Assembly: GCF_015291745.1 (NCBI RefSeq)
Contig: NZ_CP030059.1
Coordinates: forward strand, 7,033,501-7,097,500
Source of the DNA: Bradyrhizobium sp. CCBAU 53351
Lineage (GTDB): Bacteria > Pseudomonadota > Alphaproteobacteria > Rhizobiales > Xanthobacteraceae
Length of the DNA: 64,000 nt
Direction of reading: 5' to 3'
Made by a program: the position numbers and the translations under genes. Shown here in pieces: positions 3,862 to 20,600 of this stretch (the stretch's first letter is position 1; every line of letters starts with the position of its first letter). Under the pieces are notes generated by a model that worked only from the letters and a program-made list of their open reading frames with translations, had not been told where the DNA came from and searched no databases.

Positions 3862-3935
3862 TGGAGCGGGCGAAGGGAATCGAACCCTCGTATGCAGCTT
3901 GGGAAGCTGCCGTTCTACCATTGAACTACGCCCGC
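3862..3935 (-). tRNA. tRNA-Gly(CCC)
   Basis: Read on the minus strand, the 74 bases fold as a full cloverleaf: acceptor stem GCGGGCG/CGCCCGC, D-arm GTTC-AATGGTA-GAAC, anticodon arm GCAGC-TTCCCAA-GCTGC with anticodon CCC, T-arm GAGGG-TTCGATT-CCCTT, discriminator T and an encoded CCA. It is the integration target of the neighbouring island. Its 5' half (3897-3935) is identical to 20538-20576 at the other island end, so everything upstream of base 3935 is now island DNA. Confidence 0.95.
3897..3935 (-). repeat. attL core (39-bp direct repeat, inside intact tRNA-Gly)
   Basis: The 39 bases from GCTTGGGAAGC to the end of the acceptor strand (CGCCCGC) recur exactly at 20538-20576. The flanks differ at once on both sides (a/t before, aaatc/ggatg after), which defines the identity block. 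It covers the tRNA 5' acceptor strand, D-arm and most of the anticodon arm. Recombination must have occurred within it. Confidence 0.92.
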
Positions 3936-4254
3936 AAATCGCTTTAAATTCAGACACTTAAGCCCATCAGCGAGTTTCGACCATGTGGCCATCGTGTGGC
4001 CGCTGATCTCCGATCACCATACAACTGCGACTGGAAGGATCAAGGGCTGCCGAGGAAGCAAACGACGCAACGCGCCTATGGCTTCAGAACCGGCGGAACG
4101 GAGAGATGATGACATGCGTTCTGCCTAGGCATAAAATCGATCTTGCTGAGGTGTTGCGAATGTGCAACTGGACACAATATTTTCTTAACCGATTCACGTC
4201 ACCCTAGGGAACTGCAACCCGAGATGGTAACCAGACCTAATCCGGGGGAATTTC
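3936..4254. other. Gene-free left end of the island
   Basis: No coding region was found in these 319 bases. On the minus strand this is now the upstream region of tRNA-Gly. An AT-rich TTTAAA (3943-3948) lies 7 bases before the tRNA and could act as a -10 element, but no convincing -35 accompanies it. In the excised circle the same DNA would lie upstream of the integrase gene. Confidence 0.5.
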
Positions 4255-4446
4255 ATGATTGAAGCCATTACCGTTGTGACCATAGCGGGCGGCGTCTTGA
4301 GCGCGGTGGCCGCGGGAATTTTCCTTGGTTCCCGCTACGTGGACGCAAAGCTTCACTATGAAGAGACTAAAATCAATTTGGATCGGCCAGTTCTCGCGCC
4401 TCAATTCAGGCGCGGCAGAGCTTCTGGAGAACACGGCGCCGCTTAA
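4255..4446 (+). CDS. Small hypothetical protein with one N-terminal membrane segment
   Basis: A 63-residue frame with one hydrophobic helix (residues about 5-26, VVTIAGGVLSAVAAGIFLG) and a charged, basic C-terminus. An upstream ccgggggaatttc gives a plausible ribosome binding site before ATG 4255. It ends 12 bases before the GTG of the next gene, in the same direction, so the two may be co-transcribed. No family was recognised. It could be a small membrane partner of the following protein. Confidence 0.5.
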   Translation: MIEAITVVTIAGGVLSAVAAGIFLGSRYVDAKLHYEETKINLDRPVLAPQFRRGRASGEHGAA

Positions 4447-4458
4447 GGGCGGGCCTCG

Positions 4459-5463
4459 GTGAACTTCTCTGCCAAAGTTAAATCTGGCGCGAAGGATTTG
4501 GTCGCCGACGCCTTTTCGGCGGCTTGGAAATATATTCGCGGTGTTTTGCTCGCAGCCGCCGGGGTGTACGCGCTCTCAGCAGTGCAAAACCTCTACAGCC
4601 TCGACCATGTGCCTACGCAAGACGAGGCCTTAGCACTCCTTTGGAAATCGGCCAAAGGAATGCCTGCCCTTGTTCAAGATTGGTTGGTCTCAAGGCCTTA
4701 CGATGCCGTGATAGACCATCCGATCCTGTCAGCAGTGATCCTCATCTTGGTTGTGGTCGCTGTCGTGCTCGGGTTCTTGCTTACGCGCGCTCATTCGATT
4801 TTGAACCTGCAGAGCACGATCCTCAGCGGAGCTGACGCAAACTACGCATTGGTGACGCAAGCCGGGATCGAGGGGCGCTTCCCCCATGCTAGGCAGAGTG
4901 AGGACGGTGCGCCTTGGAAATCCCTATGCGAGGAAATTCTTAGTCCCGAGAACAAATTCGTCTACATCCTCGGGGCGAATGGCATCGATACTTTTGGGAG
5001 GCCGGGTGCCCCTCTCTATGAGGCTCTGCAGAACTTTCGCGGCAACATCCGAGTAATTCTGTGCAAGCCCGGCAGCAAGCAAATGAAGGGACGGGCTGCC
5101 GCTGTCGGCGTCAATTCGAACGACTATGAAAAAGCCATCAGAGACTCAGTCAAGCGACTAAGAACCCTTCGAAACCAAGCCTATTCGGTTGAGGGGCGAT
5201 ACTACGAAGGCCAGCCCAACTGGAAACTGATCATCACAAACTCGACCGTGTGGGTGCAGTATTACTTGCCCGGTGGGCCACACGTTGATCAAACGCCTGT
5301 CTGGCTCGTTTCAGTCACACCTAATGCGGATGGCTTTTATCATTTGTTCCATCTTGAGTTTAATCGCATTTGGGAGCGCTGCGCGAGTAATCCTATCACC
5401 CTGAACTCCAGTACAGGGACAAAGAATGGATCAGCGGCAGCCAAAGTCCGCAAACCAGCATGA
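4459..5463 (+). CDS. Two-helix membrane protein with phospholipase-D-like C-terminal domain
   Basis: This 334-residue protein starts at a GTG. It has two membrane segments (about residues 27-45 and 88-109) and a soluble domain at about 125-315. The soluble domain has a strand-rich pattern (FVYILGANGIDTF, then GNIRVILCKPGS, then KLIITNSTVWVQYYLPGG, then GFYHLFHLEFNRIWE). This order resembles PLD-superfamily-like domains seen in bacterial conflict proteins, but no HxKxxxxD catalytic motif is visible. The fold is therefore a low-confidence inference, and enzymatic activity is doubtful. It sits beside another multi-pass membrane gene in the variable part of the island, which suggests a sensor or effector role at the membrane. 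Confidence 0.6.
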   Translation: MNFSAKVKSGAKDLVADAFSAAWKYIRGVLLAAAGVYALSAVQNLYSLDHVPTQDEALALLWKSAKGMPALVQDWLVSRPYDAVIDHPILSAVILILVVVAVVLGFLLTRAHSILNLQSTILSGADANYALVTQAGIEGRFPHARQSEDGAPWKSLCEEILSPENKFVYILGANGIDTFGRPGAPLYEALQNFRGNIRVILCKPGSKQMKGRAAAVGVNSNDYEKAIRDSVKRLRTLRNQAYSVEGRYYEGQPNWKLIITNSTVWVQYYLPGGPHVDQTPVWLVSVTPNADGFYHLFHLEFNRIWERCASNPITLNSSTGTKNGSAAAKVRKPA

Positions 5464-5509
5464 AATTCTAGCTCCAAACCCGCTGGCACCTTCGACCGGA
5501 AAATAAGCG

Positions 5510-6055
5510 ATGTCACTTACGGACATTCTACAGCGCGCCACCCCGCCCGAAGACGCGCGCGCGACGATGGAATTTGAGAAGATGCGCTTAGAGCTGTCGT
5601 GGCGCTATTTCGATTTTCATGCTCGACAGCGAACACAGCTCTTCCACTTTTTTGTGATTTTATCGCCATTCGTCTTTGGCGGATGCTTCTACCTGTTGAA
5701 AGAGAGATCGCAACTGGGTGGGTTGCCGGGGATCATCGCCCCATGCGCGGGGGCGCTTCTGGTGATCGTGTTCTTCGGTCTGGATCGCCGCAACCGACAG
5801 ATGATTGAAATCGCAGAAGAGGCGCTAATGCTCCTGGAACAGCATCTTCTCTTTGCGTCGTTTCGGACGATCGGCAGCGCTTTTCCCGGGCCCATGACGA
5901 AAGAGCATGAAGTCAATTGCAAACGACGGTTCGCGAAATGCCGAGGCCACACATTCCTCATCAGTCTCGTCTATTTACTTGCGTTTGCCTTGTTTCTAGC
6001 CCTTTCCCTCTACGCCTTCCTCATCGAGTCCGGCCATTTATTGCTTACAAGCTAG
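5510..6055 (+). CDS. Hypothetical membrane protein with three hydrophobic segments (SLATT/RipA-like)
   Basis: This 181-residue protein has three predicted membrane segments (about 47-65, 72-90 and 150-171). An amphipathic N-terminal stretch (EFEKMRLELSWRYFDFHARQR) precedes the first helix. A helix of about 50 charged residues separates segments 2 and 3. The W-x-Y-F-x-x-H-x-x-Q-R pattern before a membrane hairpin recurs in small bacterial membrane proteins near conflict systems (SLATT or RipA-like); this assignment is from memory and weak. It follows the PLD-like gene by 46 bases in the same direction and probably shares its transcript. Confidence 0.65.
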   Translation: MSLTDILQRATPPEDARATMEFEKMRLELSWRYFDFHARQRTQLFHFFVILSPFVFGGCFYLLKERSQLGGLPGIIAPCAGALLVIVFFGLDRRNRQMIEIAEEALMLLEQHLLFASFRTIGSAFPGPMTKEHEVNCKRRFAKCRGHTFLISLVYLLAFALFLALSLYAFLIESGHLLLTS

Positions 6056-6072
6056 CCCGGAAACTGAGCGAG

Positions 6073-6633
6073 CTAGCGCTTCGACGAGCCTGAGACCTGT
6101 GTTTGAACATCACCCGCTGGTCCCTGACGGTGCGGAAGCAGCGAGCTCACCAAAAAGATCGTGATAACGCCCGCAGCGAATAGGTAAAACATATGGGTGA
6201 CAAACCACGCCTTGCGGCGCGAGATTTTGCTGCTGATGTATGACGTGACGCCGTGATCCGTGACGTTTAGGTCCTGCATGATCAGCTTCTCGAATTTCTC
6301 GCCGTACTCGACGCTCGCAAGAAGCATTTGATAGTAGTAGTGCACGTCCAGGAACCACAATCCTGCAAGGAGCATCAAGCTGAGGACCATCAAGACACTC
6401 GGAAGGCCGACAAGATAGCCACCAACATCAAATCTGATGTTCTCTTTCTCGGCTATTGCGGCGGCAGCTAACAACGTCCCAATTGCCGTGAGTCCGAGCC
6501 ATCGAGTCCGAATGCTCATGTCGTTGAAGTGGGTCTGCAGCCCTGCGATCTGCTTCCAATATTCGACTCGGCCGCGCAACCGCTCGCTATCTAATTTGTC
6601 CTCGCTGCTCATGGTATCACGGCGCGTATTCAA
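6073..6633 (-). CDS. Hypothetical membrane protein with three hydrophobic segments
   Basis: This 186-residue protein has an amphipathic lead (VEYWKQIAGLQTHFNDMSIRTR), a membrane pair (about 44-62 and 75-97), a motif LDVHYYYQMLLASVEYGEKFE and a third membrane segment (about 145-167) with a polar tail. It is convergent with the preceding membrane gene, with 17 bases between the stops. No family name is certain. The layout matches small effector-like membrane proteins on variable islands. The start at 6633 gives the longest form; the ATG at 6612 (MSSEDKL) is an equally plausible start and gives 179 residues. Confidence 0.65.
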   Translation of the reverse strand: MNTRRDTMSSEDKLDSERLRGRVEYWKQIAGLQTHFNDMSIRTRWLGLTAIGTLLAAAAIAEKENIRFDVGGYLVGLPSVLMVLSLMLLAGLWFLDVHYYYQMLLASVEYGEKFEKLIMQDLNVTDHGVTSYISSKISRRKAWFVTHMFYLFAAGVITIFLVSSLLPHRQGPAGDVQTQVSGSSKR

Positions 6634-6876
6634 AACCGACGTTGTGTGTCACCCTAAGGATCCCTGCCGCTCTCGGTGGGGGAGAGCGCGATAGAGAGCA
6701 GTTCGGCGTGCCGCCACGAGTGAATCTCATGGGGCCCGGCCATGGTTTCCAAATCGAGGTGCAGAGCGGTCATTTAACTGGCAGGGTGAGGTGATTCGCG
6801 CTTAGCTGGCAATCCACCAAAGGGCTTCAATCCGTACCTTCTGAGGCCGCGGCGACTTGTCCTCTAACTCAGCCGC

Positions 6877-7329
6877 TTATGCGAGCCAAAGAACATCCCA
6901 CCGGTTTTCGTATTGAGCGATGGCCTTGAGACTCATGAAGGCGTTCGCGTTCCACCCCTTTGGGGTCGCGACTTGATCAGCAACTTCCAAATTCCGTACG
7001 ATGAAGTAGCGAACCGGCTGTAGCGCCCGCTCGGTGCCTATCAAAACGTAGATAGTGATTTGTGACAGCGCCTCACCCTCGAACATGGACTGTTTTACGT
7101 ACCACGGCTGCGTACGAACCGTCTTGACTTGCACCTTCCTCAAAGCCGGCGCAGAGTGTTGGCCGACGAGCAGGTCATATCCCGCGGTATTACGGTCAGC
7201 GAGCTGAGCGTCGTAGCCGCGCCTAAGTAGCTCACCCATCACGAAGTACTCTCCGGCATTACCTGTGGGTATTCCAGATCGACGCTTCTTCGGAGACGTT
7301 GCGCCTGGTTCTCCTAACCCAGTGGTCAT
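6877..7329 (-). CDS. Hypothetical protein with PD-(D/E)XK nuclease-like fold
   Basis: This 150-residue protein carries the spaced residues of a PD-(D/E)XK nuclease-like fold: GNAGEYFVMGELLRRGYD (helix with Glu), then NTAGYDLLV (Asp) and KVQVKT (the D/E-x-K strand, here Q-x-K). Similar small proteins occur in mobile islands, and active members cleave DNA. The E-to-Q change at the third position is common in the family but leaves activity uncertain. The ATG at 7327-7329 is chosen because GAGGAGGG lies 7-8 bases upstream. It follows the 287-residue nuclease-like gene by 26 bases on the same strand, so the two probably form an operon. Confidence 0.68.
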   Translation of the reverse strand: MTTGLGEPGATSPKKRRSGIPTGNAGEYFVMGELLRRGYDAQLADRNTAGYDLLVGQHSAPALRKVQVKTVRTQPWYVKQSMFEGEALSQITIYVLIGTERALQPVRYFIVRNLEVADQVATPKGWNANAFMSLKAIAQYENRWDVLWLA

Positions 7330-7355
7330 TATGTGCCCTCCTCTCGGTGATGAAC

Positions 7356-8219
7356 TTACCGATGCGACCATTGCTCGGCAGCTTGCATCACCTGCTGAAG
7401 GAGCTCGCGATGCTTGCTCACTTGGTCAGCATTGAGGAACATCTGGATTGCCGCCTGTCCGCGGCTCTCCGCCTCGAGACCAGCTTCTTCGATTTTGGCC
7501 AACAAGCCCGGGCGAGCCTCGGATCCAACCTTGATGCGTACCAAGCAGTGCGCGGCAATCTTTTTTGGGAAGAACCAAGCAAACAGGTAACCGGAAGTGC
7601 CAACGGCAATATGCGTTTTGTTGAAAGTGACTCTCGGCTCTTTGATTAGCGAGACGGCCGCGTCCACAGCACTTAGAGCTTCGTGTTTTGCCTTCTTTTC
7701 CCAATACGCGCGATCGGTCAGTTCGGATGGATCACTCTCGCCATCGCCTTCACCGAATTCATAGGTGTCGAGCACTCGAAGGAATTGCAAAACGACCTCT
7801 TCGCCGATCTGAAAAGCACTCAATTGAATCGCGATCAATGGCACGGCACGATTTAGCAGCCTGATGACGTTGAAGAACCTGCTGGTTATCTCTTCCGCAA
7901 CGATGACGGCTCGGTGCTCAACTAAGGGGAACCGCTGACGCTCCATGTCCCAATATTCAATCGTTCTGATGATATGACTGGGGTCGGTTGCCCCCAGCAT
8001 GATCTCGACTTCATAGCGTGTCTCGTTCGGCTCATCGGACAATACGAAATCGATGCGCCCCCCGGTCGGCTGTACTTTCTCTTTCTGGAAGACGGTCAGC
8101 TCGCCCAATCCGAGTAGGGAGGGGTCTTCAGCGATTTGCTTTTGGAGCCATGATTCGCTCAGGCCTAGCGACTTCAAGCGCTGAGGCGCGGCCTTACGTA
8201 GCTTCAAAAAGCCGGACAT
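7356..8219 (-). CDS. Hypothetical protein with nuclease-like N-terminal domain
   Basis: This 287-residue protein belongs to a family that I recognise by the block GGRIDFVL, YEVEIMLGATDPSHI, IRTIEYWDMERQRFP and AVIVAEEITSRFFNVI. The D followed by E-x-E/M on adjacent strands (residues about 55-75) suggests a PD-(D/E)XK-type core. The C-terminal half (about 170-287) carries an aspartate/lysine-rich linker and a helical domain of unknown role. It is the first gene of a two-gene minus-strand operon with the smaller nuclease-like protein. The upstream gap holds only T tracts. A defence or DNA-processing role is an inference from fold and location. Confidence 0.72.
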   Translation of the reverse strand: MSGFLKLRKAAPQRLKSLGLSESWLQKQIAEDPSLLGLGELTVFQKEKVQPTGGRIDFVLSDEPNETRYEVEIMLGATDPSHIIRTIEYWDMERQRFPLVEHRAVIVAEEITSRFFNVIRLLNRAVPLIAIQLSAFQIGEEVVLQFLRVLDTYEFGEGDGESDPSELTDRAYWEKKAKHEALSAVDAAVSLIKEPRVTFNKTHIAVGTSGYLFAWFFPKKIAAHCLVRIKVGSEARPGLLAKIEEAGLEAESRGQAAIQMFLNADQVSKHRELLQQVMQAAEQWSHR

Positions 8220-9084
8220 TGTTGTTACTCCCTTTCCATCAGGAGTAGCCCAGACGTCGTTTTCAACGTCTTAGTGCCGCGACACCTTTCTTACGTGATG
8301 AGCGCCGCGGTTAACGATTTCCGACGGTCCGGGAATTTATGACTTTTTTTTTGTCTTTTTTTTTTTGAGCTTTGAAAGCTTCTGGCAAATTCAGGCCACG
8401 AGCTAGGGGACATAATGATTTCCCGAGACGCGGGCTCCGGAGGTCGTTACCCGGTAGCTGATCCAACACAGCTAGTGACGGCGCGATCCGCTGTTCGTTC
8501 GCGTCAACCCTTCCTTCACTATGATGTTGCCCAAGACGAAGGCAACAGGGCCGAACGTGGTTAAGCGGTTTCGCATAGCACCCGTTATGGAATCTTTTCG
8601 AGGTCGCGCAAGCCGCGTGCCAGCCTGTTAGATGGGCAAATGCATGGCTCTGGAGAAAGGGCCGAAGCCATGTGCCCAGCGCATTAGGGATTCGTTAACG
8701 CTCGCGCCGGTTGCGGTCACGATCCCGCCGCATTTCGACGTTACCGAAGCGCGAGGCTGCCCGCCGAAAATCCGAAGTAGGGCCTTTGTGTAAAACTATC
8801 CGGAGTCGTTATGGTTAATCGTTAATCTTAACGCCCCCGTCTAGACCGCTCTCAGGGCGTCGGATTGCCAATTAAATCAAAACTCGGCAGTCCAGTTCTT
8901 CCAAAAACCAAATTGCGGCGAGCCTCTGCAACGCCTGAACCGTCTGCAACGCCTATTTCCTATATAGCCATTATTCCAGCCAACCCTCAGTAGGAAACAG
9001 GCGTAGCAGGCGTAGCAGGTGTTTCATGACCGATTAGATCAAAACTCGCGGCAGCACTCGCACGGCGCAGATGAGAAAATGGCT
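8220..9084. other. Long gene-free stretch in the island
   Basis: These 865 bases contain no coding frame that I can support. They hold two oligo-T runs (T9 at 8344-8352 and T11 at 8356-8366) followed by the palindrome AGCTTTGAAAGCT (8369-8381), and the iterated inverted repeat at 8926-9018. The middle part (about 8400-8900) shows nothing recognisable. It could be decayed coding DNA or a control region. Confidence 0.5.
8926..9018. repeat. Iterated inverted repeat (iteron-like)
   Basis: CTGCAACGCCT occurs twice with an 18-base period (8926-8936 and 8944-8954). About 45 bases later the near-complement AGGCGTAGCAG occurs twice with a 9-base period (8999-9009 and 9008-9018). The two arms extend into TTTCCT/AGGAAA, so the whole is an imperfect inverted repeat made of iterated 11-mers. 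Such arrangements are typical of protein-binding sites at origins or operators; which protein binds is unknown. Confidence 0.6.
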
Positions 9085-9492
9085 TCAGCGGTTCCCGCGC
9101 TTCAGGAACGTCCAAACCGGCGAGGCGCCGTCCCAGCGTCGAAGGCGCCCATAGAACCGCACCCGCACACCGGCCTCGCGAAGGCGCTCGACAACCAGAT
9201 GCAGCGCGATCACGTCACCCTCTGCCAGCTCCACGCAACCACGCTTCCGAGACCACCGAGCCCCGGGAAAGCGAAATAGGTTCGCCTTGAGCCATCGGCC
9301 GCCGCGCTCTGACAGCGGTTGCAGGTCAACCTGCGGACCGCTCCGCCAGGGCCGCAGTCCGACGTCCGGCCGGCGCAGCAAATTCGCAATCCATCCCATG
9401 ATTACGGCTTGCACGACGCAGAGTGTTCTTGTCAATTTCGGCCGTGAGTGGGTTGATGAAGCCTTAATGTAAGCCGACTGTTTTCTCATCAC
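9085..9492 (-). CDS. Hypothetical protein of the island
   Basis: A 135-residue frame, rich in Arg and Trp, with a plausible core (about residues 32-135: GWIANLLRRPDVGLRPW, DLQPLSERGGRWLKANLF, VELAEGDVIALHLVVERL). The true start may be the internal Met before GWIANLL, near 9397. No family was recognised. Support comes from an uninterrupted frame and from a related but broken copy at 10057-10136, which suggests that the sequence was once duplicated as a unit. Moderate to low certainty that it is expressed. Confidence 0.4.
   Translation of the reverse strand: MMRKQSAYIKASSTHSRPKLTRTLCVVQAVIMGWIANLLRRPDVGLRPWRSGPQVDLQPLSERGGRWLKANLFRFPGARWSRKRGCVELAEGDVIALHLVVERLREAGVRVRFYGRLRRWDGASPVWTFLKRGNR
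9361..9440. repeat. Degenerate duplication, copy 1
   Basis: The stretch starting gacgtccggccggcgcagca aligns with 10057-10136 (gacgtccgcacggcgcagca) at roughly 80% identity by eye, including the shared tgcacgacgcagagt and ttgtcaattt. Copy 1 lies within the hypothetical gene at 9085-9492; copy 2 has no matching intact frame. Confidence 0.7.
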
Positions 9493-9605
9493 GCGGGATG
9501 CTTGCGCCGCGCTCCGAGCGGCTTCCGAGGTAGATGGCTAAAGTTGTAAGAATCAATAACAATGAGTGTTGAGACCCCTGCGCTACCCTCCGTTGCATAA
9601 ACACA

Positions 9606-9953
9606 ATGGAGGCTGCTTTGGTCGCACTTGGTGTTCTTCTTTTCGTCGTCTCTGCAATTTCGATTATCTATCCGCTTCGGTTTTTGATGATTCAAAACCG
9701 GTTCATGGCCCTGTGCGGCGTCGTCGTGTCGCTCTTCATCATCGGCTCTGCGGCTCCCGGCACGAACTCGAAGGTCGTAGCGCAAAACTCCACGCCGGCC
9801 TTCTCCAGCTCCGGGGGCTGTAAGACGGACGCCATGGGGGAGTTTAAGTGCTCGCACGAAACAAGCCTGTTCGGCACCACAACCCGCAGCGAACTGAAGT
9901 GCAAAGAGAACCCGGTTACGAGGCAATATGAATGCAAGGATTCCATTAATTAG
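9606..9953 (+). CDS. Small hypothetical membrane/secreted protein
   Basis: This 115-residue protein has two hydrophobic segments at the N-terminus (about 4-23 and 31-51). A polar C-terminal domain follows with four cysteines (GGCKTD, EFKCSH, ELKCKE, YECKD) that may pair in the periplasm. No family was recognised. The minus-strand frame over the same bases (9489-9983) lacks such organisation and is treated as a shadow. The gene stands alone. Confidence 0.6.
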   Translation: MEAALVALGVLLFVVSAISIIYPLRFLMIQNRFMALCGVVVSLFIIGSAAPGTNSKVVAQNSTPAFSSSGGCKTDAMGEFKCSHETSLFGTTTRSELKCKENPVTRQYECKDSIN

Positions 9954-10445
9954 ACCGACGTAGAACAGGCGATCAGCAGCCATGGCAAGGCCACGGTGAA
10001 GAGGGGTTGGCTAACCGAACCACCGTGGCCTGATTCGTCTGCGCAGGCCGGGACCCGACGTCCGCACGGCGCAGCAAATTCGCGATCCATGCCATTGCGA
10101 CGCCCTGCACGACGCAGAGTACCGTTGTCAATTTTCAGCGACAGGACTTCGGTCGTGCGGCGATGGGGGAGCCGTGTCGACGCCGATTGGCCTAAGTTCT
10201 CTTGTGATGGAAGGCGGACGTAGCTGGAAGACGCTGATCAGGTCCGAGTTGCACCCAAAGAGGTATTCAGCACAGTCTCAGCGCGTTGTACCCCAGTTCG
10301 GGAGCGGACTGCGCTTTGTGCCGTGCCGGCTCGTCACCCCGCCTTGGTGCATCGCAATAGCGATAAACCTTGAGATGTATCCAACTTTTCAGGCTTAATT
10401 CTGCGTCTGCTAGATTGCAGATTTCGCTAGGCGAGGAGGATACGG
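9954..10445. other. Gene-free stretch with degenerate repeat copy
   Basis: These 492 bases hold copy 2 of the degenerate repeat (10057-10136), related to the coding stretch at 9361-9440, with no intact frame around it. The end (10428-10440) carries the GGCGAGGAGGATAC ribosome binding site of the cupin gene. Nothing else was recognised. Confidence 0.5.
10057..10136. repeat. Degenerate duplication, copy 2 (gene remnant)
   Basis: It aligns with 9361-9440 at about 80% by eye. The surrounding minus-strand frame does not continue like copy 1, so this is probably a remnant of a duplicated gene. Confidence 0.6.
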
Positions 10446-13497: not shown

Positions 13498-13594
13498 CTG
13501 ACGCGCGACTCGCACCGCGTGTCGGTTGAGAGGGGTTGGGTGCGAATTGAGACTTCCCGCCCGGCCCCTCTCCAACCAGGAAAGGAAACTCTCC

Positions 13595-14089
13595 ATGACC
13601 GATCTAGCAAAACTCCTCGCCAAGCTCGACGACGCCAACGATGATCTGTGGACGCAGGACGGTGAACCAACACTGTCGGCTGCAAGCAACTTAGCGGGAA
13701 AGCGGCTGTCCCGTGACGAGGTCCGCGCGACGGGCCGGATGCGGGGACAGGCGCGAGGGGCTGAGAGGGAGGCCGCAGTCAATCACGCTCTTGAGCTCGC
13801 GCAGGCCGAGTTGGCTACCGCTGCAAAGGTGGCTGAAGTCGCCGTGATCGAGCGACGCCTCAAAGCAGCCCGCGTTGCCCTAGGTGAATCGTATCCGAAG
13901 TATATCCGGCACCAAGCGAAGCCATCGGTTGAAGATAGTATCCGGTTGCACCTGAAACGTACCGCTGAGCATGAGGCAGCCGGCAACGTCGCTGCGCCTG
14001 TCGTGACGCAGCATCAGAGCATGCTCGACAGCCTGATGGCGAACGGCGGCCGCCGTGGTTCGGCGAAGCCGCGAGGCCTGTTGCGCTAA
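13595..14089 (+). CDS. Hypothetical protein of the phage-like module
   Basis: This 164-residue protein is largely helical (AVNHALELAQAELATAAKVA, VIERRLKAARVALG) with a basic Arg/Gly-rich C-terminus. ATG 13595 is preferred because AGGAAAGGAAA precedes it; the frame could extend upstream to 13526. Its stop overlaps the ATG of the TerS-like gene by one base (TAATG), so the two are coupled. Position directly before a small-terminase-like gene suggests a packaging or DNA-binding accessory, without direct evidence. Confidence 0.6.
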   Translation: MTDLAKLLAKLDDANDDLWTQDGEPTLSAASNLAGKRLSRDEVRATGRMRGQARGAEREAAVNHALELAQAELATAAKVAEVAVIERRLKAARVALGESYPKYIRHQAKPSVEDSIRLHLKRTAEHEAAGNVAAPVVTQHQSMLDSLMANGGRRGSAKPRGLLR

Positions 14090-15012
14090 TGACAAAGCGT
14101 TCTCCCGAAACCCTCGCAGAATTCGTTGAGGCCGTCGCAGACACTGGATCGGTCGCCAACGCTGCGCGCAAAGTCGGCATCTCGATCTCCAGCGCGTGGA
14201 GCTGGATGGCGCAATCGCGTCAGGGTCAATCGGGCTTTGATTTGGAGTACATGGGACAGTCTATGCCGCTCCATGAAGCGGTGAAGCAGGCACAGCGCGT
14301 AGTCGGCGCAACGATCCTCGATAACTTCCAATTGCGCTTGTTGAAGGGCACGCAAGAGGTTAGCCGGTATCAAGGCAAGACGGTTTTCAAGCGCGATCCG
14401 AAATTGGACCTGCTCAGCGATCAGGATTTGACCGATCTAGCCATCACGACGCGATACCTGCTCGACGATGAGGGCAACCCAATTCCAGAGGTCATCCACC
14501 ACGAGCCGCCCGTTGCCGCGGTAATAAGCTTTCTCCAAGCTACCTACCCAAAAACGTGGGGGCACAAGATCGAAGTGAGCAACCGCTCCACGGCAGCGAG
14601 CGGCGTCCAAGTTGTGCCGAGGATGAAGCCAGCTGCCGCGATCAATGCGCCAGCCGAGCCGCCCGTTGATGTCGAGCCGAAGGACTTGACTGACATCCTC
14701 GGTCCGGACGATGAGAGCGTGCCGGCCACAATCGAGCTTGAGGTAACGCCAGCTCCAGAGCCGGGGCCATCAGCCGAAGCCGTCGAGCCGGGGGCAGAAT
14801 CAGCATCGCCGGCCGAGCCTGAGCCCCCGAGCGAGTCGCTGAAGCCACTCTCCGCCTTGCAGTTGGATTTGATGGCTCGCCTCGCGCAACGATCCAACGC
14901 GACCAAACCCGCGCCTGTGATGGTTTCGTCCGGCCGGATTGAAGCTGACGACCTCGATCCCCGCAGGAACGGCGCAGGCACGCCACCTAAGGGCGCGGTG
15001 AAAGTGGTGTGA
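14089..15012 (+). CDS. Terminase small subunit-like HTH protein with long Pro/Glu-rich tail
   Basis: This 307-residue protein starts with an HTH as in phage small terminases (EFVEAVADTGSVANAARKVG, then ISISSAWSWM). A helical part follows (HEAVKQAQRVVGATILDNFQ) and then AVISFLQATYPKTWGHKIEV, which matches the end of many TerS domains. Residues about 185-290 are rich in Pro, Glu and Ala and probably disordered. A large terminase subunit is not present, so it may act with a helper phage enzyme, as satellite TerS proteins do. It could also be another DNA-binding regulator; TerS is the better guess. Confidence 0.6.
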   Translation: MTKRSPETLAEFVEAVADTGSVANAARKVGISISSAWSWMAQSRQGQSGFDLEYMGQSMPLHEAVKQAQRVVGATILDNFQLRLLKGTQEVSRYQGKTVFKRDPKLDLLSDQDLTDLAITTRYLLDDEGNPIPEVIHHEPPVAAVISFLQATYPKTWGHKIEVSNRSTAASGVQVVPRMKPAAAINAPAEPPVDVEPKDLTDILGPDDESVPATIELEVTPAPEPGPSAEAVEPGAESASPAEPEPPSESLKPLSALQLDLMARLAQRSNATKPAPVMVSSGRIEADDLDPRRNGAGTPPKGAVKVV

Positions 15013-15015
15013 ACC

Positions 15016-15471
15016 ATGTTCGATGATCTCTTCGACGAAATGGCGGGCGGTGACGATCTTCCTTTGGGGAGCGGACCGGACGTCACGCAAGCCGGCATCC
15101 TAATCGTCGCGGCGAAAGCTCCGCACGGATCAGCTCTTCATGCCGAGGAGCGCGCGCACCTCGCGTCAGTTCACATCCCGATGGTGGTTTTCGAGGCGGT
15201 CGATCCGACGACGGGCGAGGTGACCTTCGGCAACGCCTCGGAATTTCAAGAAGCCATGGGCTCACTCCTGCCACCATCGATCGACGAGGCCATAGCTTGG
15301 AGTACCGAGCGGCTGGTTGAAATCTTTGAAGCGCACCGTGAAGCGGTCGAGGCCGCCGAGCTCGACGCCGCAGTGAGAGCCCCCAACATGCCGGCGCCGG
15401 GAGCTGGCTTCGTTACGTCCCGAGCCAGGATGCCCCACTCAACGGGTCGAGACCGAGGACAAAAGCGATGA
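15016..15471 (+). CDS. Hypothetical protein of the phage-like module
   Basis: This 151-residue acidic protein begins 3 bases after the TerS-like gene. The middle holds a small strand-rich part (AGILIVAAKAPHG, IPMVVFEAVDPTTGEVTFG), and the C-terminal half is helical. No family was recognised. Its stop overlaps the ATG of the next short frame in ATGA, a coupling arrangement. Confidence 0.6.
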   Translation: MFDDLFDEMAGGDDLPLGSGPDVTQAGILIVAAKAPHGSALHAEERAHLASVHIPMVVFEAVDPTTGEVTFGNASEFQEAMGSLLPPSIDEAIAWSTERLVEIFEAHREAVEAAELDAAVRAPNMPAPGAGFVTSRARMPHSTGRDRGQKR

Positions 15472-15620
15472 ACGGCGCGCCAAGACTCAACGGAGTCCGT
15501 GGGGCGGCCATCCGTGGCGCCCGCACCAGACGGCGGGGAGCTCGGAGAGACTCACACACAGACGCGGCTGTGAGTCCTAGCAGCTGCTCAACCGCGCCAA
15601 ACGGGTCTGTACCATTATGA
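15468..15620 (+). CDS. Short basic protein coupled to upstream gene
   Basis: A 50-codon frame opens with the ATGA overlap at 15468-15471 and ends TGA at 15618-15620. It encodes a basic peptide (MNGAPRLNGVRGAAIRGART, then RRRGARR). The start resembles short phage peptides with GAPxGN(x)N-like starts, but this is weak. The 4-base stop/start overlap is the main support. Confidence 0.4.
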   Translation: MNGAPRLNGVRGAAIRGARTRRRGARRDSHTDAAVSPSSCSTAPNGSVPL

Positions 15621-16026
15621 GCCATATATGAAAGTCGGCTCGGCAGCGGTTAACGAGGCGTGACTTTTGGCCAAAACTAGGCTATAAATGCGACAGCGGT
15701 CGCACCATGCGCCGGGCGATATAGGCCCCGCGTCGTCAGCTCCCGAGCTGGCAAGTCGAGCAGCATCCCATTCCGACACCAGGACACAACGAAAAACCCC
15801 ACCGGCTGAACTCCGGTAGGGCTTCGTGAAGGTCCGCATTTGTGCCGCAGCAGCTTTTCCGAGCCCGTTGGCGGTGACGCTCAAGTTCATGGATTGAACG
15901 TGCTGTTCTCTTACACGAAAACCCGATTCGATTCAACCGAAATCTCGTCGTCGCTGATCCAGCGACGCGATATTTTTGCGCGTCCCCTCTGCGGCATCAT
16001 CCACACGCAACAGGGAGACGTTGACC
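15621..16026. other. Gene-free stretch before the primase operon
   Basis: These 406 bases contain a minus-strand terminator-like hairpin (15792-15821) and several overlapping frames, none convincing. The last bases carry the ribosome binding site (cagggaga) of the gene at 16027. A minus-strand RNA ending at the hairpin is possible but unsupported. Confidence 0.4.
15792..15821 (-). terminator. Terminator-like hairpin on the minus strand
   Basis: On the minus strand CCCTACCGG (15821-15813) pairs with CCGGTGGGG (15805-15797, one G-T pair) across a 7-base loop and is followed by TTTTTC. No minus-strand gene is recognised upstream, so the RNA it ends is unknown. Confidence 0.45.
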
Positions 16027-16524
16027 ATGCTTAGATTGCCTCACCTTCATCAGTGGGGGCGGCTACCTCACCGCTACGACCCACCTTCGCCGCTTCGCCC
16101 CCGCGAGATCGCCAAGCTTGGCGATGCTCTTGATAAATGCGAGGGCCTGCCCGATTGGCGCCTCGGAAGCCAAGACGCGGAAGTCCAATATCAAGCAGCG
16201 CTCCGGGACCGGGTGTGGCACGCCCTGCGCAAATTCGAGCTCGTCAAGACGCCGCCGCGCCGTGACGACGTCGCGCGCGCACGCGACGAGGCCGATGACG
16301 CAGAATTCGAATTGCGGTTGGCTATTACGGCGCGTGAGCTCCTCGACGCCACCGCCGCCTTCGAGCTCGCACAGGGTCGATATGAGATTGCCAAGCGCAA
16401 ATATTCTGCTTCGCGTCGGCGAGCTCGCGCAGACGAACTCGCCGGCAAGAACCTGATCACTCTTCGCGGGATGGTCTTCCACCGCACGAAGAAAACGAGA
16501 AAGCCGTCCGATGCCGAAGAATAA
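16027..16524 (+). CDS. Hypothetical coiled-coil-prone protein
   Basis: This 165-residue protein is very rich in Arg and Glu and largely helical (residues about 75-140, with repeated DDVARARDEADDAEFELRLA and AFELAQGRYEIAKRKYSASR). It precedes and overlaps the VapE-type gene by 14 bases (16511-16524), so they are co-translated. It may be a partner of the helicase. ATG 16027 is chosen because cagggagac precedes it; the frame could begin at 15976. Confidence 0.6.
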   Translation: MLRLPHLHQWGRLPHRYDPPSPLRPREIAKLGDALDKCEGLPDWRLGSQDAEVQYQAALRDRVWHALRKFELVKTPPRRDDVARARDEADDAEFELRLAITARELLDATAAFELAQGRYEIAKRKYSASRRRARADELAGKNLITLRGMVFHRTKKTRKPSDAEE

Positions 16525-17956
16525 GAAGTCAGCCCCCGAAGTCCGGGCTGCTGCCGAAGCCATCGCCAGCACTGCTATTGTGCCGGCGGTTCCTTCGCGG
16601 CCCGGCCGCCTCGTCCCGATTGAACGCAGGGAGATCGTTTGGCCTGAGATCGTCGGCCGTAACGTGCCTGCAAAGAACAGCATGATGAATGCTCTCAAGG
16701 CTATCCAAGAGCTGGGATTGGATTGCCGCTATGATGTCTTTCACAACCGAAAGATCATCAATGGCACGTGCCTTTCCGAGTTCGTCGGCGAACTCTCTGA
16801 TGCGGTGACACGCAAAATTCGCGAGCTTTCATATCTCCATTTCGGTTATGATGCCGGTACGGAAGCAACCTACCAAGCTGTTCTCCGTGAGTGCGAAGAA
16901 CATCGCTTCAATCCCGTGCTCGACTATCTGTCGGGCCTCCGTTGGGATGGACAGCCGCGGATCAACAGATGGCTGCCGACGTATCTCGGAGTGGAGGATA
17001 CGCCGCTGGTGCGTGCGCAAGGCGAGATTGTGCTTACCGCGGCCGTGGCCCGCGTCATGAAGCCGGGCTCCAAATTTGACCATGTGCTCGTCCTCGAAGG
17101 CGAGGAAGGCAAGCGTAAGTCTAGCGTTGTGAAGGTTCTCGCTAATGGCCAACATGACAGCGACGAAAACTTTTCGGATTCTCCGATTTTAGCGGAAGAT
17201 GAGAGAAAGCAGCAGGAGCTAACGAGCGGCGTGTGGTTCTATGAGGTGGCCGAGCTCGCGAAAATGAAAAAGGCGGATGAGTTCGCGATCAAGAACCTGA
17301 TCACAAAACAGGAAGACCGCGCTCGGCCTGCGTATGGGCGCTTTCAAGAAGTCCAGCCGCGGACGTGCATCTTCATTGGCACGTTCAACACCACGACTGA
17401 CGGAAAGTTGGTCGAGTACTTGAATGTCGGCGACCAACGCCGCTGGTGGCCTGTCCGGGTCGGTGATATCGACATCGAAGCGCTGAAGCGGGATCGCGAT
17501 CAGCTGTTCGCGGAAGCCGTGGTCGCCTATAAACTCGGCATGCCGCTTTTTCTCGATAAGGAGCTTGAAGCGGAAGCGCGTGGCCAGGCCGCACGCCGCG
17601 AGATTGTTGACCCGCTTACGGATACCCTGTCAGACATTGAGGCGGCCGCACTGAAGATGCTGCAAGAGAAGGTCGCACCGAATGGCGCCGGAGTTTCGGT
17701 GGCGGATCAAAAAAGCGGCAAGCTTCTGACGATCGGAGACGAAGCCAAGCCCGCCGTATTCATCACCGAGTCGGAGATTTGGGTTTCCGCAAAGTACGTC
17801 ACGGAACGCGCTCCCTCCAGCCGGCAAAGCGACGGCAGGGGCATTTCGGCAGCTATTAAAAAGTTGGGCTGGGCTCCAGCACATGATCGGCGAACGGGTG
17901 CCTTTGCACGCGGCTACGTGCGCAAGCGCGACGATTTTTCAGACCTAGGAGTTTAA
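16511..17956 (+). CDS. VapE/VirE-type primase-helicase (phage or satellite replication protein)
   Basis: This 481-residue protein matches the virulence-associated E (VapE) P-loop ATPase family. Residues about 130-160 hold the family lead (NPVLDYLSGLRWDGQPRIN). The Walker A region reads LEGEEGKRKSSVVKVL, a GxxGxxKS variant in which the usual last glycine before Lys is Arg. Walker B-like WFYEVAELAKMKKADEFAIK, the arginine-rich DRARPAYGRF and the sensor motif CIFIGTFNTT follow, then NVGDQRRWWPVRVG. Such ATPases initiate replication of satellites and plasmids. The C-terminal 100 residues (from about 385) form a likely DNA-binding domain. It is the clearest replication gene of the island and lies directly before the integrase end. 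Confidence 0.88.
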   Translation: MPKNKKSAPEVRAAAEAIASTAIVPAVPSRPGRLVPIERREIVWPEIVGRNVPAKNSMMNALKAIQELGLDCRYDVFHNRKIINGTCLSEFVGELSDAVTRKIRELSYLHFGYDAGTEATYQAVLRECEEHRFNPVLDYLSGLRWDGQPRINRWLPTYLGVEDTPLVRAQGEIVLTAAVARVMKPGSKFDHVLVLEGEEGKRKSSVVKVLANGQHDSDENFSDSPILAEDERKQQELTSGVWFYEVAELAKMKKADEFAIKNLITKQEDRARPAYGRFQEVQPRTCIFIGTFNTTTDGKLVEYLNVGDQRRWWPVRVGDIDIEALKRDRDQLFAEAVVAYKLGMPLFLDKELEAEARGQAARREIVDPLTDTLSDIEAAALKMLQEKVAPNGAGVSVADQKSGKLLTIGDEAKPAVFITESEIWVSAKYVTERAPSSRQSDGRGISAAIKKLGWAPAHDRRTGAFARGYVRKRDDFSDLGV

Positions 17957-17958
17957 AC

Positions 17959-18357
17959 ATGCGGAGCTCCCCTCTCCCGCGATTCACGTATGATGTGCCC
18001 GAATGGCTTTGCTGCTTGTTAGACGCTGCGGTCTATGAGGCATACAAGGTGACAGACGGCGTGGATCCTGACACGACTGCGTTTGAGCAGGCGTTCATCA
18101 CGTCGCTGATCGAACAGACGCCAATGGATTCCATCGCCGAATGCCTCGACGGAGACACGGCGGCTACGCTGGCCCGTGCGCTCAATCGTCGGGCAGCACG
18201 AAGCGCCCGCATGAGCGGGCGAGCTCGCGTGAGGGAAGTCGAGTCGCAACATCAGCCATGGGTTGGGTTGCAGCGGCGGGACGATGATCCAGAGCTTGAT
18301 GCCATCCTGTTCGGCCAATCGTCGCTTAGCGATGCAGGGCAGCGCGGTCATCTATGA
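17959..18357 (+). CDS. Hypothetical protein downstream of VapE-like gene
   Basis: This 132-residue protein follows the helicase by 2 bases, so it is probably the last gene of the plus-strand module. The N-terminal half has a cysteine pair in VPEWLCCLLDAAVYEAYKV, and the middle has an Arg-rich patch (RRAARSARMSGRARVREVE). No family was recognised. Its end faces the minus-strand nuclease-like gene across 75 bases. Confidence 0.55.
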   Translation: MRSSPLPRFTYDVPEWLCCLLDAAVYEAYKVTDGVDPDTTAFEQAFITSLIEQTPMDSIAECLDGDTAATLARALNRRAARSARMSGRARVREVESQHQPWVGLQRRDDDPELDAILFGQSSLSDAGQRGHL

Positions 18358-18432
18358 AGGGGCGAAAGTGGCAGCATTAGAGTTACACGGCCGCACCTCC
18401 GCTGCTTCGGCAAGCCCCGGGATGCAAGGGCG

Positions 18433-18927
18433 CTAAGCTTTGTCGAGCCGCGTCCAAATCGGATCCGCGACACTCTTGAATTTGCTTACAGCAAGCGCGC
18501 CACGTTCGTTTCGTGACTTGCTTCCGGGCGCTGAAAGAGCCGCTTCGATGCATTGCCGTTCTGCCTGCCAGATGGCAGTCACACAATAGCTTGCATCAAG
18601 GAGCACAAGCAAAATCCGATGCCACGGATGCGTGAGCTTGATAGCTCCTATCTGCTGAGATCTCCGGCGACCAAGCTCGGTGATAAGTCGGGCCTTGATC
18701 TGATAGCGAAGCCCGGCTGAGTCGATCGCATCGAAACCGGGCTCGCGTGCCGCAGCTAGCGTCAGCCCAAGTAACCGAGCCGCTTCGTATTCGCCGATCT
18801 CGCCGGTGATCCCGAGAGGCTTGCCGGTTAGCCGATAGTAATCGATTGCAGCCGCGCGGGCGCGCTCAAGTATGGTGCCGATCTCCTGAATTGATCCGGC
18901 AAGTTGTTCCTGCTCTTGGACTGTCAT
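18433..18927 (-). CDS. Hypothetical protein with PD-(D/E)XK-like core (DUF6998-type)
   Basis: This 164-residue protein has a helical start, then GITGEIGEYEAARLLGLTLA (Glu), PGFDAIDSAG (Asp) and LRYQIKAR (Q-x-K), spaced as in a PD-(D/E)XK fold. I believe this is the DUF6998 type, a family of small nuclease-like proteins on mobile elements. A C-terminal part follows with CVTAIWQAERQCIEAAL. ATG 18927 and ATG 18939 are both possible; the AGGA before 18927 favours the shorter one. It is minus strand, 43 bases downstream of the integrase stop, and may be transcribed with it. Confidence 0.62.
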   Translation of the reverse strand: MTVQEQEQLAGSIQEIGTILERARAAAIDYYRLTGKPLGITGEIGEYEAARLLGLTLAAAREPGFDAIDSAGLRYQIKARLITELGRRRSQQIGAIKLTHPWHRILLVLLDASYCVTAIWQAERQCIEAALSAPGSKSRNERGALAVSKFKSVADPIWTRLDKA

Positions 18928-18970
18928 TCTGCTGATCATCCTGTCCGGCCTGGTCGGCGAAGCGATCTGG

Positions 18971-20413
18971 TCAAGCCATCGATTCGACTGCCTTCTTACG
19001 TGGCCCCAGGATCCGCCCGCGGCGCTTGCGCGCCGACACGCGTTGCGCTTTAGCCAATGCCTTGGCGTCGCGCTCAGTCCTGTACTCCGCCGCTGCGGCC
19101 GATTGTGCAAGGCCTGCATCGATCTCGGCTTTAAACGTACGGCCATTGAGCCCAAGCAACTCGACGATCCGTTTGCTCATTCGATTTTGCTCTTCGCGCA
19201 TCTTAGGGCCGTTGGCAAGGATCAGCGTCGCGATGTATTTTTGTGAAATGCCCTCCGGGGCATGTCCCATCAGGAAGTGACGGATTAGGTCATCTACGCC
19301 TAGGTCGGCCGCGACGGTCGAGTAGGTGTGTCTCAGCATGTTACCACGAGCAGGCAGCTCGTCGCGATGGCCGGCCTGGGCGCACCCTGGAAAAATCAGC
19401 GCATCCGGCGTCACCGGATAGCCCAGCTTTTCGGCGGCCTCGCGAGCCATCTTGAGCGCGGCGACGATCTCGCCGCTGATTGGAATCACAATATCTTTGC
19501 CCGCCTTGGCTTTGGCGATCACGAGTGTCCGTTCATTGTCGGAGTACGCCTCCCAGCGGAGGCGGGCCAATTCGCCGGGCCGCGGACCGACTAGCAATCC
19601 GGTCAGGTGGTAAGCTTGGCGGATCGCATTGTCGATCTTACGCCACGCCTTCAGCCACGCCGGGAAGCTTTTGAACGGCAGCGCGTCCTGTTTCGCACTC
19701 TCTTCGTTGAACTCAACGGCGGACGTCGGCAGACGCTGCGGCAACGAGACATCCAGCCGGGACGCCCGCTTGTAGGTCGCACGGATCACGCGGGCACAAT
19801 GGTTTGCTGACACCGGGCCGTTTTTCTTGGTCACTTCCGCATGCCAAGAGGAAACAGCGCCGGGGCTCATTGCCATTTCCGCGAGCGTCCACTTCGCAAA
19901 CTTTGGCAAAATGATCCCGTCACCGAGCTTTTTGACGTTGTAGTACCAACGCGGCGGCTTTCCTCGCTTCTCCGCCTTGCTCTTCAGATATTCGAGGTAG
20001 GCCGCAAACGCGATCTCGAACCGAACCGAGCTGCGCTTGTTCGGGGCCGCCTCGCCAGAGTGCACGTTGCCAACTGCGATCTCAGCGGCTTTGCGCGCAT
20101 CCTCGGTGTTCATCATTGGCCATTCGCCGAGCGTCCGGAAAATGGTGGTGCGAACTCCCTTCTCGCGACGGCGACGCCTGAAGCGCCAGACAGTCCGGTT
20201 GGCACCCACGAAGACAAAGAGACCCTTCACTATGCTGTCCGGGTACTCGACACCTTCTGAGCGCTCGTTATTGGTACCGAAGCTTCTACGGTCGGCCGCG
20301 TCGCTGTCCGCGAATTCCCGGAGCGCTTCGATATGATCGTCCGTGAGCTTCCGCGGTGCTCTCGCCGGCGCCTTACGCGCCCTCCGCGCCGGCAAATTTC
20401 GTGTGGCCGCCAT
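18971..20413 (-). CDS. Tyrosine recombinase (island integrase)
   Basis: This 480-residue phage-type integrase has an N-terminal arm/SAM-like region (about 95-220) and a C-terminal catalytic domain. Motifs: first catalytic Arg in LVGPRPGELARLRW, beta-hairpin Lys in KAKAGKDIVIP, second Arg in GNMLRHTYSTVA, His in FLMGHAPEG and the tyrosine in SQKYIATL. The HxxR His is Asn here (NMLR). It integrates the island into tRNA-Gly by recombination at the 39-bp core, and its gene lies 124 bases inside attR, transcribed away from it. In the integrated state it sits downstream of the stranded native tRNA promoter (20601-20629). Confidence 0.93.
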   Translation of the reverse strand: MAATRNLPARRARKAPARAPRKLTDDHIEALREFADSDAADRRSFGTNNERSEGVEYPDSIVKGLFVFVGANRTVWRFRRRRREKGVRTTIFRTLGEWPMMNTEDARKAAEIAVGNVHSGEAAPNKRSSVRFEIAFAAYLEYLKSKAEKRGKPPRWYYNVKKLGDGIILPKFAKWTLAEMAMSPGAVSSWHAEVTKKNGPVSANHCARVIRATYKRASRLDVSLPQRLPTSAVEFNEESAKQDALPFKSFPAWLKAWRKIDNAIRQAYHLTGLLVGPRPGELARLRWEAYSDNERTLVIAKAKAGKDIVIPISGEIVAALKMAREAAEKLGYPVTPDALIFPGCAQAGHRDELPARGNMLRHTYSTVAADLGVDDLIRHFLMGHAPEGISQKYIATLILANGPKMREEQNRMSKRIVELLGLNGRTFKAEIDAGLAQSAAAAEYRTERDAKALAKAQRVSARKRRGRILGPRKKAVESMA

Positions 20414-20537
20414 GTGGACAGTTTCCGGCTTTTGGACCGGCTCCCGCGCTATGCGATGGCGAGATGGATAGCACAGAATGCCTTAAAAATAAGGGATTTT
20501 CGACATTTCCGGGGATGTGGGTAAACAGCAAACTTAT

Positions 20538-20576
20538 GCTTGGGAAGCTGCCGTTCTACCATTGAACTACGCCCGC
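20538..20576 (-). repeat. attR core: truncated 5' half of tRNA-Gly
   Basis: Identical to 3897-3935. It contains the 5' acceptor strand, D-arm and anticodon loop of tRNA-Gly(CCC) but continues into unrelated sequence, so the T-arm and 3' end are missing and no functional tRNA can form. It marks the right island boundary. Confidence 0.92.
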
Positions 20577-20600
20577 GGATGCGCGAGGCCGCGCGCCTCC

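What the first reader, a model, noticed from the sequence alone, without database searches (positions are those of the whole stretch)
3897..20576. 16.6-kb element integrated into the 5' half, not the 3' half, of a tRNA gene
The 39-bp direct repeats contain the 5' acceptor strand, D-arm and anticodon loop of tRNA-Gly(CCC). Most tRNA-targeting tyrosine recombinases use an identity block reaching from the anticodon or T-loop to the 3' end, so that the gene is restored with its own promoter. Here the intact gene lies at the left end and the integrase at the right end, next to the truncated 5' half. The repeat lengths and endpoints are read from the sequence; the rarity is from general knowledge.
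Basis: partly seen in the sequence, partly recalled or inferred. Interest (0 to 1): 0.75.

Follow-up and report, generated by a model that had tools for sequence, protein, structure and literature searches.

The report
Mobile island in tRNA's front half
A 16.6-kb mobile DNA island sits in the front half of a single-copy glycine tRNA gene, so the tRNA now stands behind the island's DNA while its own promoter faces the island's integrase; this layout is known but uncommon, and related integrases turn out to attack the same tRNA from either side.

Summary
A 39-bp exact repeat (3897-3935, 20538-20576) is the first 39 nt of the genome's only tRNA-Gly(CCC). Thirteen of 195 congeneric genomes show the joined flanks in one match, so this is a real insertion and the right copy is the displaced native 5' half. 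In eight occupied genomes read at both ends, the intact gene has element DNA upstream, and the native upstream DNA precedes the truncated half, facing int.

The kind is known: Islander counts 159 of 3919 islands with 5' fragments; pTN3-like archaeal elements do it.

The new part is comparative. Of 167 related integrase ORFs (147 distinct), the tRNA fragment beside int is a 5' half in 44 (36 distinct), always on int's strand, and a 3' half in 83 (75), always opposite. The whole anticodon loop lies inside the shared block in 126 of 127. Labels change at least 13 times on a 102-row tree (6 forced by well-supported branches), even at the same tRNA-Gly(CCC). I infer that the near-palindromic anticodon arm is a two-way socket; flipping decides which gene half, and which promoter, is replaced. 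Transcription and excision are untested.

The parts
3862..3935 (-). intact tRNA-Gly(CCC): native 3' part plus element-borne 5' half
   Evidence: ARAGORN; repeat endpoints; single copy
3897..3935 (-). left att copy (39 bp), tRNA nt 1-39
20538..20576 (-). right att copy: displaced native 5' half of tRNA-Gly(CCC)
3899..3905 (-). anticodon loop TTCCCAA (tRNA nt 31-37), inferred 7-bp crossover region; same in the right copy at 20540-20546
   Evidence: fragment boundaries of related integrases, (inference)
3894..3910 (-). anticodon arm GCAGCTT-CCC-AAGCTGC, perfect inverted repeat around the anticodon
   Evidence: sequence
3936..20537 (.). body of the integrated element, GC 57.6%
18971..20413 (-). 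tyrosine integrase (480 aa), Arm-DNA-bind_3 + Phage_integrase; reads away from the truncated half
   Evidence: R278, R361, H384, Y393 invariant in the 7 aligned sequences
20601..20629 (-). native tRNA promoter-like pair TTGGCG-17-TAATCA, now facing the truncated half and int
   Evidence: same motif before the intact gene in empty genomes; function inferred
4016..4043 (-). element promoter-like pair TTGATC-16-TATGGT, now upstream of the intact tRNA (in the circle, upstream of int)
   Evidence: hexamers kept in G113 and a G047 relic, not in G053; function inferred
3984..4002 (+). pair of 8-bp repeats TGTGG[CA]C[AG] 11 bp apart: putative left arm-type integrase sites
   Evidence: 4 of the 9 plus-strand matches in 64 kb lie in these two pairs (5 more on the minus strand elsewhere); pattern chosen after seeing the ends
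20402..20420 (+). matching repeat pair at the right end, overlapping the int start: putative right arm-type sites
12282..12548 (+). HTH_17 protein, excisionase-like
16511..17956 (+). VapE-like helicase/primase-type replication protein
14089..15012 (+). HTH protein weakly like a terminase small subunit (E 4e-4)
18433..19155 (-). DUF6998 / restriction-enzyme-like (mREase_II) cargo; listed start overlaps int, true start probably further in
7356..8219 (-). cargo gene shared with the G113 element (42% identity)

Best explanation
The 3897-20576 unit is an integrative island whose tyrosine integrase recombines an element attP with the anticodon arm of tRNA-Gly(CCC). Crossover most likely lies in the 7-bp anticodon loop (inferred from boundaries). 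The element end far from int carries a spare 5' half, so the gene is rebuilt from element 5' half plus native 3' half, while the native 5' half and its promoter stay behind next to int (shown at DNA level). Integration therefore exchanges promoters: the native tRNA promoter would read through the truncated half into int, and an element promoter at 4016-4043, which in the circular form would drive int, would now drive the tRNA (inferred). The 5' rather than 3' choice reflects the direction in which the element's att site is laid over a near-palindromic anticodon arm; related integrases have switched direction repeatedly (tree-based inference).
For: Exact 39-bp repeat and single-copy tRNA. Empty sites in 13 of 195 congeners. 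All six aligned relatives of the integrase (44-70% identity) have the same half next to int, 37-39 of 39 nt (L063, L064, L065, L066 twice, L070). The native promoter motif lies upstream of the intact gene in empty genomes G092, G066, G094, G040, but upstream of the truncated half in occupied G000, G113, G053, G177, G045, G021, G181 and, as TAAGCA, G161. G053's rebuilt gene differs at one base from its displaced half, as expected if the 5' half came from the element. Boundaries: of 64 fragments at >=97% identity, 27 of 27 5' halves end 0-7 nt beyond the loop and 37 of 37 3' halves start 0-5 nt before it; at any identity 126 of 127. Strand rule: 44 of 44 5' halves on int's strand, 83 of 83 3' halves opposite; 35 of 35 and 67 of 67 after merging. 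The mirror type is real: in G061 a related integrase sits on the 3' side of the same tRNA-Gly, with the native promoter kept. A second tRNA, Thr(TGT) in G055, shows the same displacement of native-like upstream DNA.
Against: No excision, circle, cleavage site or transcript was measured. The consensus scanner found no minus-strand promoter in 3900-4460 (one on the plus strand) and none in 20400-20760. My own scoring gives the element pair a shuffle frequency of 0.01 here and 0.03 in G113, but of eight element ends tested G177 (0.81) and G021 (0.55) show nothing, and the conserved native pair itself rates only 0.15-0.31, so the score discriminates poorly. G053's left end lacks the conserved pair. 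The right-hand arm repeats overlap the int start, leaving the true start codon open. One 3'-labelled row, L256, starts 17 nt beyond the loop start. In G133 the element does not rebuild the gene: both tRNA-Thr halves are left broken, with a separate tRNA-Thr gene nearby.
Confidence: 0.85

Rival explanations
1. The right copy is an unrelated tRNA remnant, or the repeat arose by duplication or homologous recombination rather than by site-specific integration.
For: Congeners hold stray 5'-half fragments away from the gene, e.g. G047, G144, G150, G004, G192.
Against: The native flank and promoter sit at the right copy and rejoin the tRNA in empty genomes. Four of the stray copies (G047, G144, G004, G192) have upstream DNA that resembles an element left end (by eye, and G047 aligned); G150 and G133 were not placed. 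In the eight occupied genomes the truncated copies stop matching within a few nt of the anticodon loop.
Confidence: 0.03
2. Ordinary 3'-type integration followed by inversion of the element or swapping of its ends made a 5'-looking arrangement.
For: Mirror-image 3' types exist at the same tRNA (G061).
Against: An inversion between att copies would not leave the native promoter beside the truncated 5' half; int reads away from the fragment in all 44 5' cases, and the arrangement recurs in diverged integrases.
Confidence: 0.03
3. The orientation is real, but promoter exchange has no function: the tRNA is served by read-through from inside the element and int by its own promoter.
For: Consensus scans find no fitting promoter at either end; two of eight element ends score no better than shuffles; no expression data.
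Against: The TTGATC/TATGKT pair is kept in three elements whose surrounding DNA has mostly diverged; the nearest sizeable ORF at the left end, 4459-5463, points away from the tRNA; ICEKp1 shows tRNA-promoter-driven int (PMC13023037, one section read).
Confidence: 0.3
4. The 5'/3' mixture in the integrase tree is an artefact of mislabelled fragments or a poor tree rather than repeated flips.
For: Labels outside the genus rest on the window genome's own tRNA library; some are weak (L264, 79% identity, E 5e-4). The 102-row tree is a quick one with 33 of 99 inner branches under 80 support.
Against: No two sequences >=90% alike had different labels; strand rule 127 of 127; 6 changes are forced by starred branches; a careful 24-row tree forces 4 and rejects the ten 5' Gly rows as one clade, AU p 1.9e-5, a group named after seeing the first tree.
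Confidence: 0.1

Closest known systems
Bacterial islands with a 5' tDNA fragment (Islander; Zhao and Williams 2002)
   Same: Gene rebuilt with an element-borne 5' half; displaced 5' fragment marks the far end. Islander: 159 of 3919 islands (PMC4383910, passages).
   Different: Zhao and Williams 2002 could not be read here, so overlap with that element is unknown. The Islander passages seen do not relate orientation to integrase phylogeny.
pTN3/TKV-type archaeal elements
   Same: 41-bp att in a tRNA-Leu gene; tRNA rebuilt but separated from its original promoter (PMC5495485, legend passage); 5' half used, expressed from the integrase promoter (PMC8371274, passage).
   Different: There integration breaks int; here int is whole and the att site lies upstream of it. 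Archaeal integrase.
ICEKp1 promoter switching (abstract also names ICEclc, ICEEc1)
   Same: int driven by the host tRNA promoter when integrated and by the element's other end when circular (PMC13023037, abstract and one section).
   Different: ICEKp1 uses the 3' end and keeps the tRNA on its own promoter; here the tRNA itself is moved behind element DNA.
Sinorhizobium meliloti phage-related sequences at tRNA 5' ends
   Same: 9 of 88 at the 5' end, tRNA integrity kept (PMC11476347, one section).
   Different: Which tRNAs and integrases the nine use was not in the text I read (a supplementary table).
P4-type (Arm-DNA-bind_3) integrases with canonical tRNA 3' sites
   Same: Same domain make-up.
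   Different: Canonical P4 layout has int beside the intact tRNA (recalled, no call); here int is beside the truncated half.

Membership tests
tRNA-targeting integrative element using a 5'-half att site | direct repeat equal to the 5' part of a tRNA, intact gene at one end | tested here: met
tRNA-targeting integrative element using a 5'-half att site | empty site with the flanks joined through one tRNA | tested here: met
   13 of 195 congeners
tRNA-targeting integrative element using a 5'-half att site | native upstream region displaced with the 5' fragment | tested here: met
Tyrosine integrase with Arm-DNA-bind_3 | both domains over the curated cut-off; catalytic R, R, H, Y present | tested here: met
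   the first His of HxxR is N or Q in the 7 aligned sequences (catalytic roles recalled)
Tyrosine integrase with Arm-DNA-bind_3 | recombination activity | not testable with these tools
   none
pTN3-like element | integration splits int | tested here: not met
   int 18971-20413 is one open frame; att at 20538-20576
Integrative and conjugative element | relaxase and conjugation genes | tested here: not met
   none among the 18 element ORFs scanned with Pfam; other short or overlapping ORFs were not scanned
Phage satellite (PICI-like) | integrase, AlpA-like regulator and primase, 10-20 kb, helper dependence | tested here: inconclusive
   int, HTH_17 and VapE are present, with a weak terminase-like hit; helper not testable

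The most novel reading that the evidence does not exclude
tRNA anticodon arms are two-way sockets for one family of integrases. The arm is a near-palindrome whose asymmetric centre is essentially the anticodon itself, so the same protein can face it either way, and attP direction has flipped many times in evolution. Each flip decides whether the element replaces the back half of the gene (tRNA keeps its promoter) or the front half (tRNA and integrase exchange promoters). The general rarity of 5' integration would then reflect selection on tRNA expression rather than enzyme chemistry.
Probability: 0.6. Interest if true: 0.72.

Novelty: new member of a known kind. Interest (0 to 1): 0.55.

Why it matters
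Textbook integration into tRNA genes spares the gene's promoter. These elements give natural matched pairs (for example G061 against G181 and G161: related integrases, same tRNA-Gly, opposite sides) with which one can ask directly why most elements take the 3' half, and what it costs a cell to run a single-copy tRNA from a mobile element's DNA. The layout could also act as a retention device, since silencing the element end would hit the only tRNA-Gly(CCC) (speculation; Gly(TCC) and Gly(GCC) tRNAs are present).

Tried and rejected
Phage records: no tblastn match to the integrase, and by DNA only the tRNA-Gly part in one record. The fraction of 5' types was not treated as a census because seeds were 5' types. 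Enrichment of symmetric TT-NNN-AA loops among 5' types (25 of 47 against 10 of 55, Fisher p 3e-4) was not used as an argument: rows are related and the loops are read from the library. Promoter scoring was judged weak. Rows dropped before counts: 3 of 170 loci gave no integrase ORF; of 167 ORFs, 30 had no tRNA fragment, 5 were 'other', 5 had an intact tRNA beside int (3 same strand, 2 opposite; unexplained); the 167 include the same gene fetched twice, 147 distinct proteins: 36 five, 75 three, 27 none, 5 other, 4 intact; 1 of 127 labelled rows was outside 280-600 aa and 24 of 126 were merged at >=90% identity. NCBIfam gave no name for the integrase. Orientation flips in print: none seen in the listings (19 and 66 list only 20 of 102 and 20 of 401 papers); the library lacks most subscription papers, including Zhao and Williams 2002 and Williams 2002.
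Full report
WHAT IS THERE. The window comes from an 8.34-Mb, 2-contig assembly. Its genus is not named; Bradyrhizobium is my inference from named records carrying close integrases (e.g. B. manausense, 92% to the G021 integrase, which lies in the same genus as the window). The only tRNA in the window is tRNA-Gly(CCC), 3862-3935 on the minus strand. Its first 39 nt recur exactly at 20538-20576, and no third copy exists in the genome within 3 mismatches. The 16.6 kb between are poorer in GC (57.6%) than the flanks (67.1% and 65.3%).

IT IS AN INSERTION. Joining the left flank with its tRNA to the sequence from 20577 gives a 620-nt query. In 195 congeneric genomes, 13 hold it as one match across both flanks at 78-91% identity, and many more match from about nt 160 through the right flank (listed rows only, the list being cut). 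Genomes in which the match starts at the 39-bp block or up to 8 nt before it (G113, G021, G181, G177, G045) were fetched and carry an integrase gene beside a truncated tRNA copy.

WHICH HALF MOVED. Upstream of the intact gene, empty genomes G092, G066, G094 and G040 share the motif CTTGGCG, 17 nt, TAATCA. In occupied G000, G113, G053, G177, G045, G021 and G181 (and G161, with TAAGCA) this region lies upstream of the truncated half instead, and the intact gene, where its end was read, has unrelated element DNA upstream. For G045 only the truncated end was read. G139 shows the same against G004, whose native upstream DNA differs from the other genomes. That makes eight genomes read at both ends: G000, G113, G053, G177, G021, G181, G161, G139. 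In G053 the rebuilt gene carries one base unlike the displaced half, as expected for an element-borne 5' half. So the 5' half and the promoter were displaced.

OCCUPANCY. The 5' 37-mer occurs twice or more in 17 of 195 congeners, including four copies in G053 and three in G177, where two elements lie in tandem. G011 is an inverted duplication of the locus. Extra copies in G047, G144, G004 and G192 are away from the gene with upstream DNA resembling an element left end; I read them as relics or rearranged junctions without proof. G150 and G133 were not placed, and G080 has a second complete copy.

ELEMENT ANATOMY. The integrase (18971-20413, minus) has Arm-DNA-bind_3 and Phage_integrase domains; R278, R361, H384 and Y393 are invariant in seven aligned sequences, while the first His of the HxxR box is N or Q. 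Other genes: an HTH_17 excisionase-like protein, a VapE-like helicase, a weak terminase-small-subunit-like protein, and cargo including a restriction-enzyme-like and a Hydrolase-TM-like protein. No relaxase or conjugation gene was seen among 18 scanned element ORFs. Eight window genes including int have counterparts in the G113 element at E 1e-6; VapE does not. An 8-bp repeat, TGTGG[CA]C[AG], occurs as a pair 11 bp apart on each side of the att core in the would-be circle (3984/3995 and 20402/20413; 4 of 9 plus-strand matches in 64 kb, plus 5 on the minus strand; pattern chosen after seeing the ends): candidates for arm-type integrase sites.

PROMOTERS. On the left end, CTTGATC, 16 nt, TATG[GT]T is kept in G000, G113 and a G047 relic while most DNA around it has diverged; G053 lacks it. 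It ends about 80 bp before the tRNA. In a circle it would point through attP into int. After integration it points at the tRNA, and the native tRNA promoter points through the truncated half into int. This exchange is shown as DNA layout only; promoter scores are mixed (three of eight element ends at shuffle frequency 0.03 or less, two at 0.55 and 0.81; native pair 0.15-0.31) and the consensus scanner found neither promoter. ICEKp1 provides an experimental parallel for the int side and pTN3 for the tRNA side.

A FAMILY-WIDE RULE. Integrases related to the window's or to a second lineage at the same site gave 170 loci and 167 integrase ORFs, 147 of them distinct. Against a library of the 46 own tRNAs, the fragment beside int is a 3' half in 83, a 5' half in 44, none in 30, other in 5 and an intact gene in 5 (distinct: 75, 36, 27, 5, 4). 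All 44 5' halves lie on int's strand and all 83 3' halves on the other: the anticodon side always faces int. At >=97% identity, 27 of 27 5' halves end 0-7 nt beyond the anticodon loop and 37 of 37 3' halves start 0-5 nt before it; at any identity the loop is inside in 126 of 127, L256 being the exception. The loop is thus the common core of both types.

FLIPS. After merging at 90% identity (102 rows: 35 five, 67 three; no merged pair disagreed) the quick tree needs at least 13 label changes, 6 forced by starred branches; shuffled labels need about 29, so the label is also inherited. Gly(CCC) and Arg(CCT) are hit both ways within the genus; Lys(CTT), Thr(CGT) and Met(CAT) when other genera are added, where labels are less certain. 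A careful 24-row tree forces 4 changes and rejects the ten 5' Gly rows as one clade (AU p 1.9e-5, group named after the first tree). The closest opposite pair is 62% identical and uses the same tRNA-Gly(CCC). In G061 the mirror type was read at both ends: native promoter, intact tRNA, element on the 3' side, 3' half beside int. For Thr(TGT), G055 shows the 5' type with native-like upstream DNA displaced and a further 3' fragment about 0.9 kb downstream of the intact gene. For other tRNAs only the int-side fragment was examined, apart from positions of intact Arg(CCT) copies.

WHY IT CAN FLIP. The arm GCAGCTT-CCC-AAGCTGC reads the same from both sides except for the anticodon. An integrase that binds the stem would see the same site either way; only the centre must match between attP and attB. 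That the anticodon loop and stem resemble a lambda-type core is established (PMC8371274, passages); the inference that this allows recurrent reversal is mine.

NOVELTY. 5'-half integration is known (Islander 159 of 3919; S. meliloti 9 of 88; archaea). The window element is a new member. In the searches named under Tried and rejected I saw no report of repeated orientation change within an integrase family; many relevant papers are not held.

Noticed in passing
L346 / G133:C35 near 39110 and 77010: In G133 the chromosomal tRNA-Thr(TGT) is left in two halves at the ends of an about 38-kb stretch, and a different complete tRNA-Thr(TGT) gene lies just inside one end: replacement by a whole spare tRNA rather than by half a gene.
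   Followed up: partly
L347 / G055:C3:511266-511314: A 3' half of tRNA-Thr(TGT) lies about 0.9 kb downstream of the intact gene, which also bears a 5'-type element upstream: the same gene seems to have been hit from both sides.
   Followed up: partly
window 18971-20413: The HxxR box of the integrase clade at tRNA-Gly has N or Q in place of the first His (GNMLRHT, GQKLRHS).
   Followed up: no
L066 and L196 (G177): Two elements of the same family in tandem at tRNA-Gly(CCC), about 16.5 and 18.2 kb, each with its own integrase.
   Followed up: partly
window 18433-19155 and 6073-6633: Cargo resembling a methyl-directed restriction enzyme (PADLOC mREase_II, E 5.5e-40) and a Hydrolase-TM defence component (E 6e-15).
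   Followed up: no
window 8220-10445: About 2.2 kb of the element with no convincing gene between the 7356-8219 gene and the cupin gene at 10446; only short or overlapping ORFs.
   Followed up: no
G053:C1:7670777-7775118: A second pair of tRNA-Gly 5' halves about 104 kb apart in G053, neither with the native 3' half: apparently an element outside the tRNA gene.
   Followed up: no
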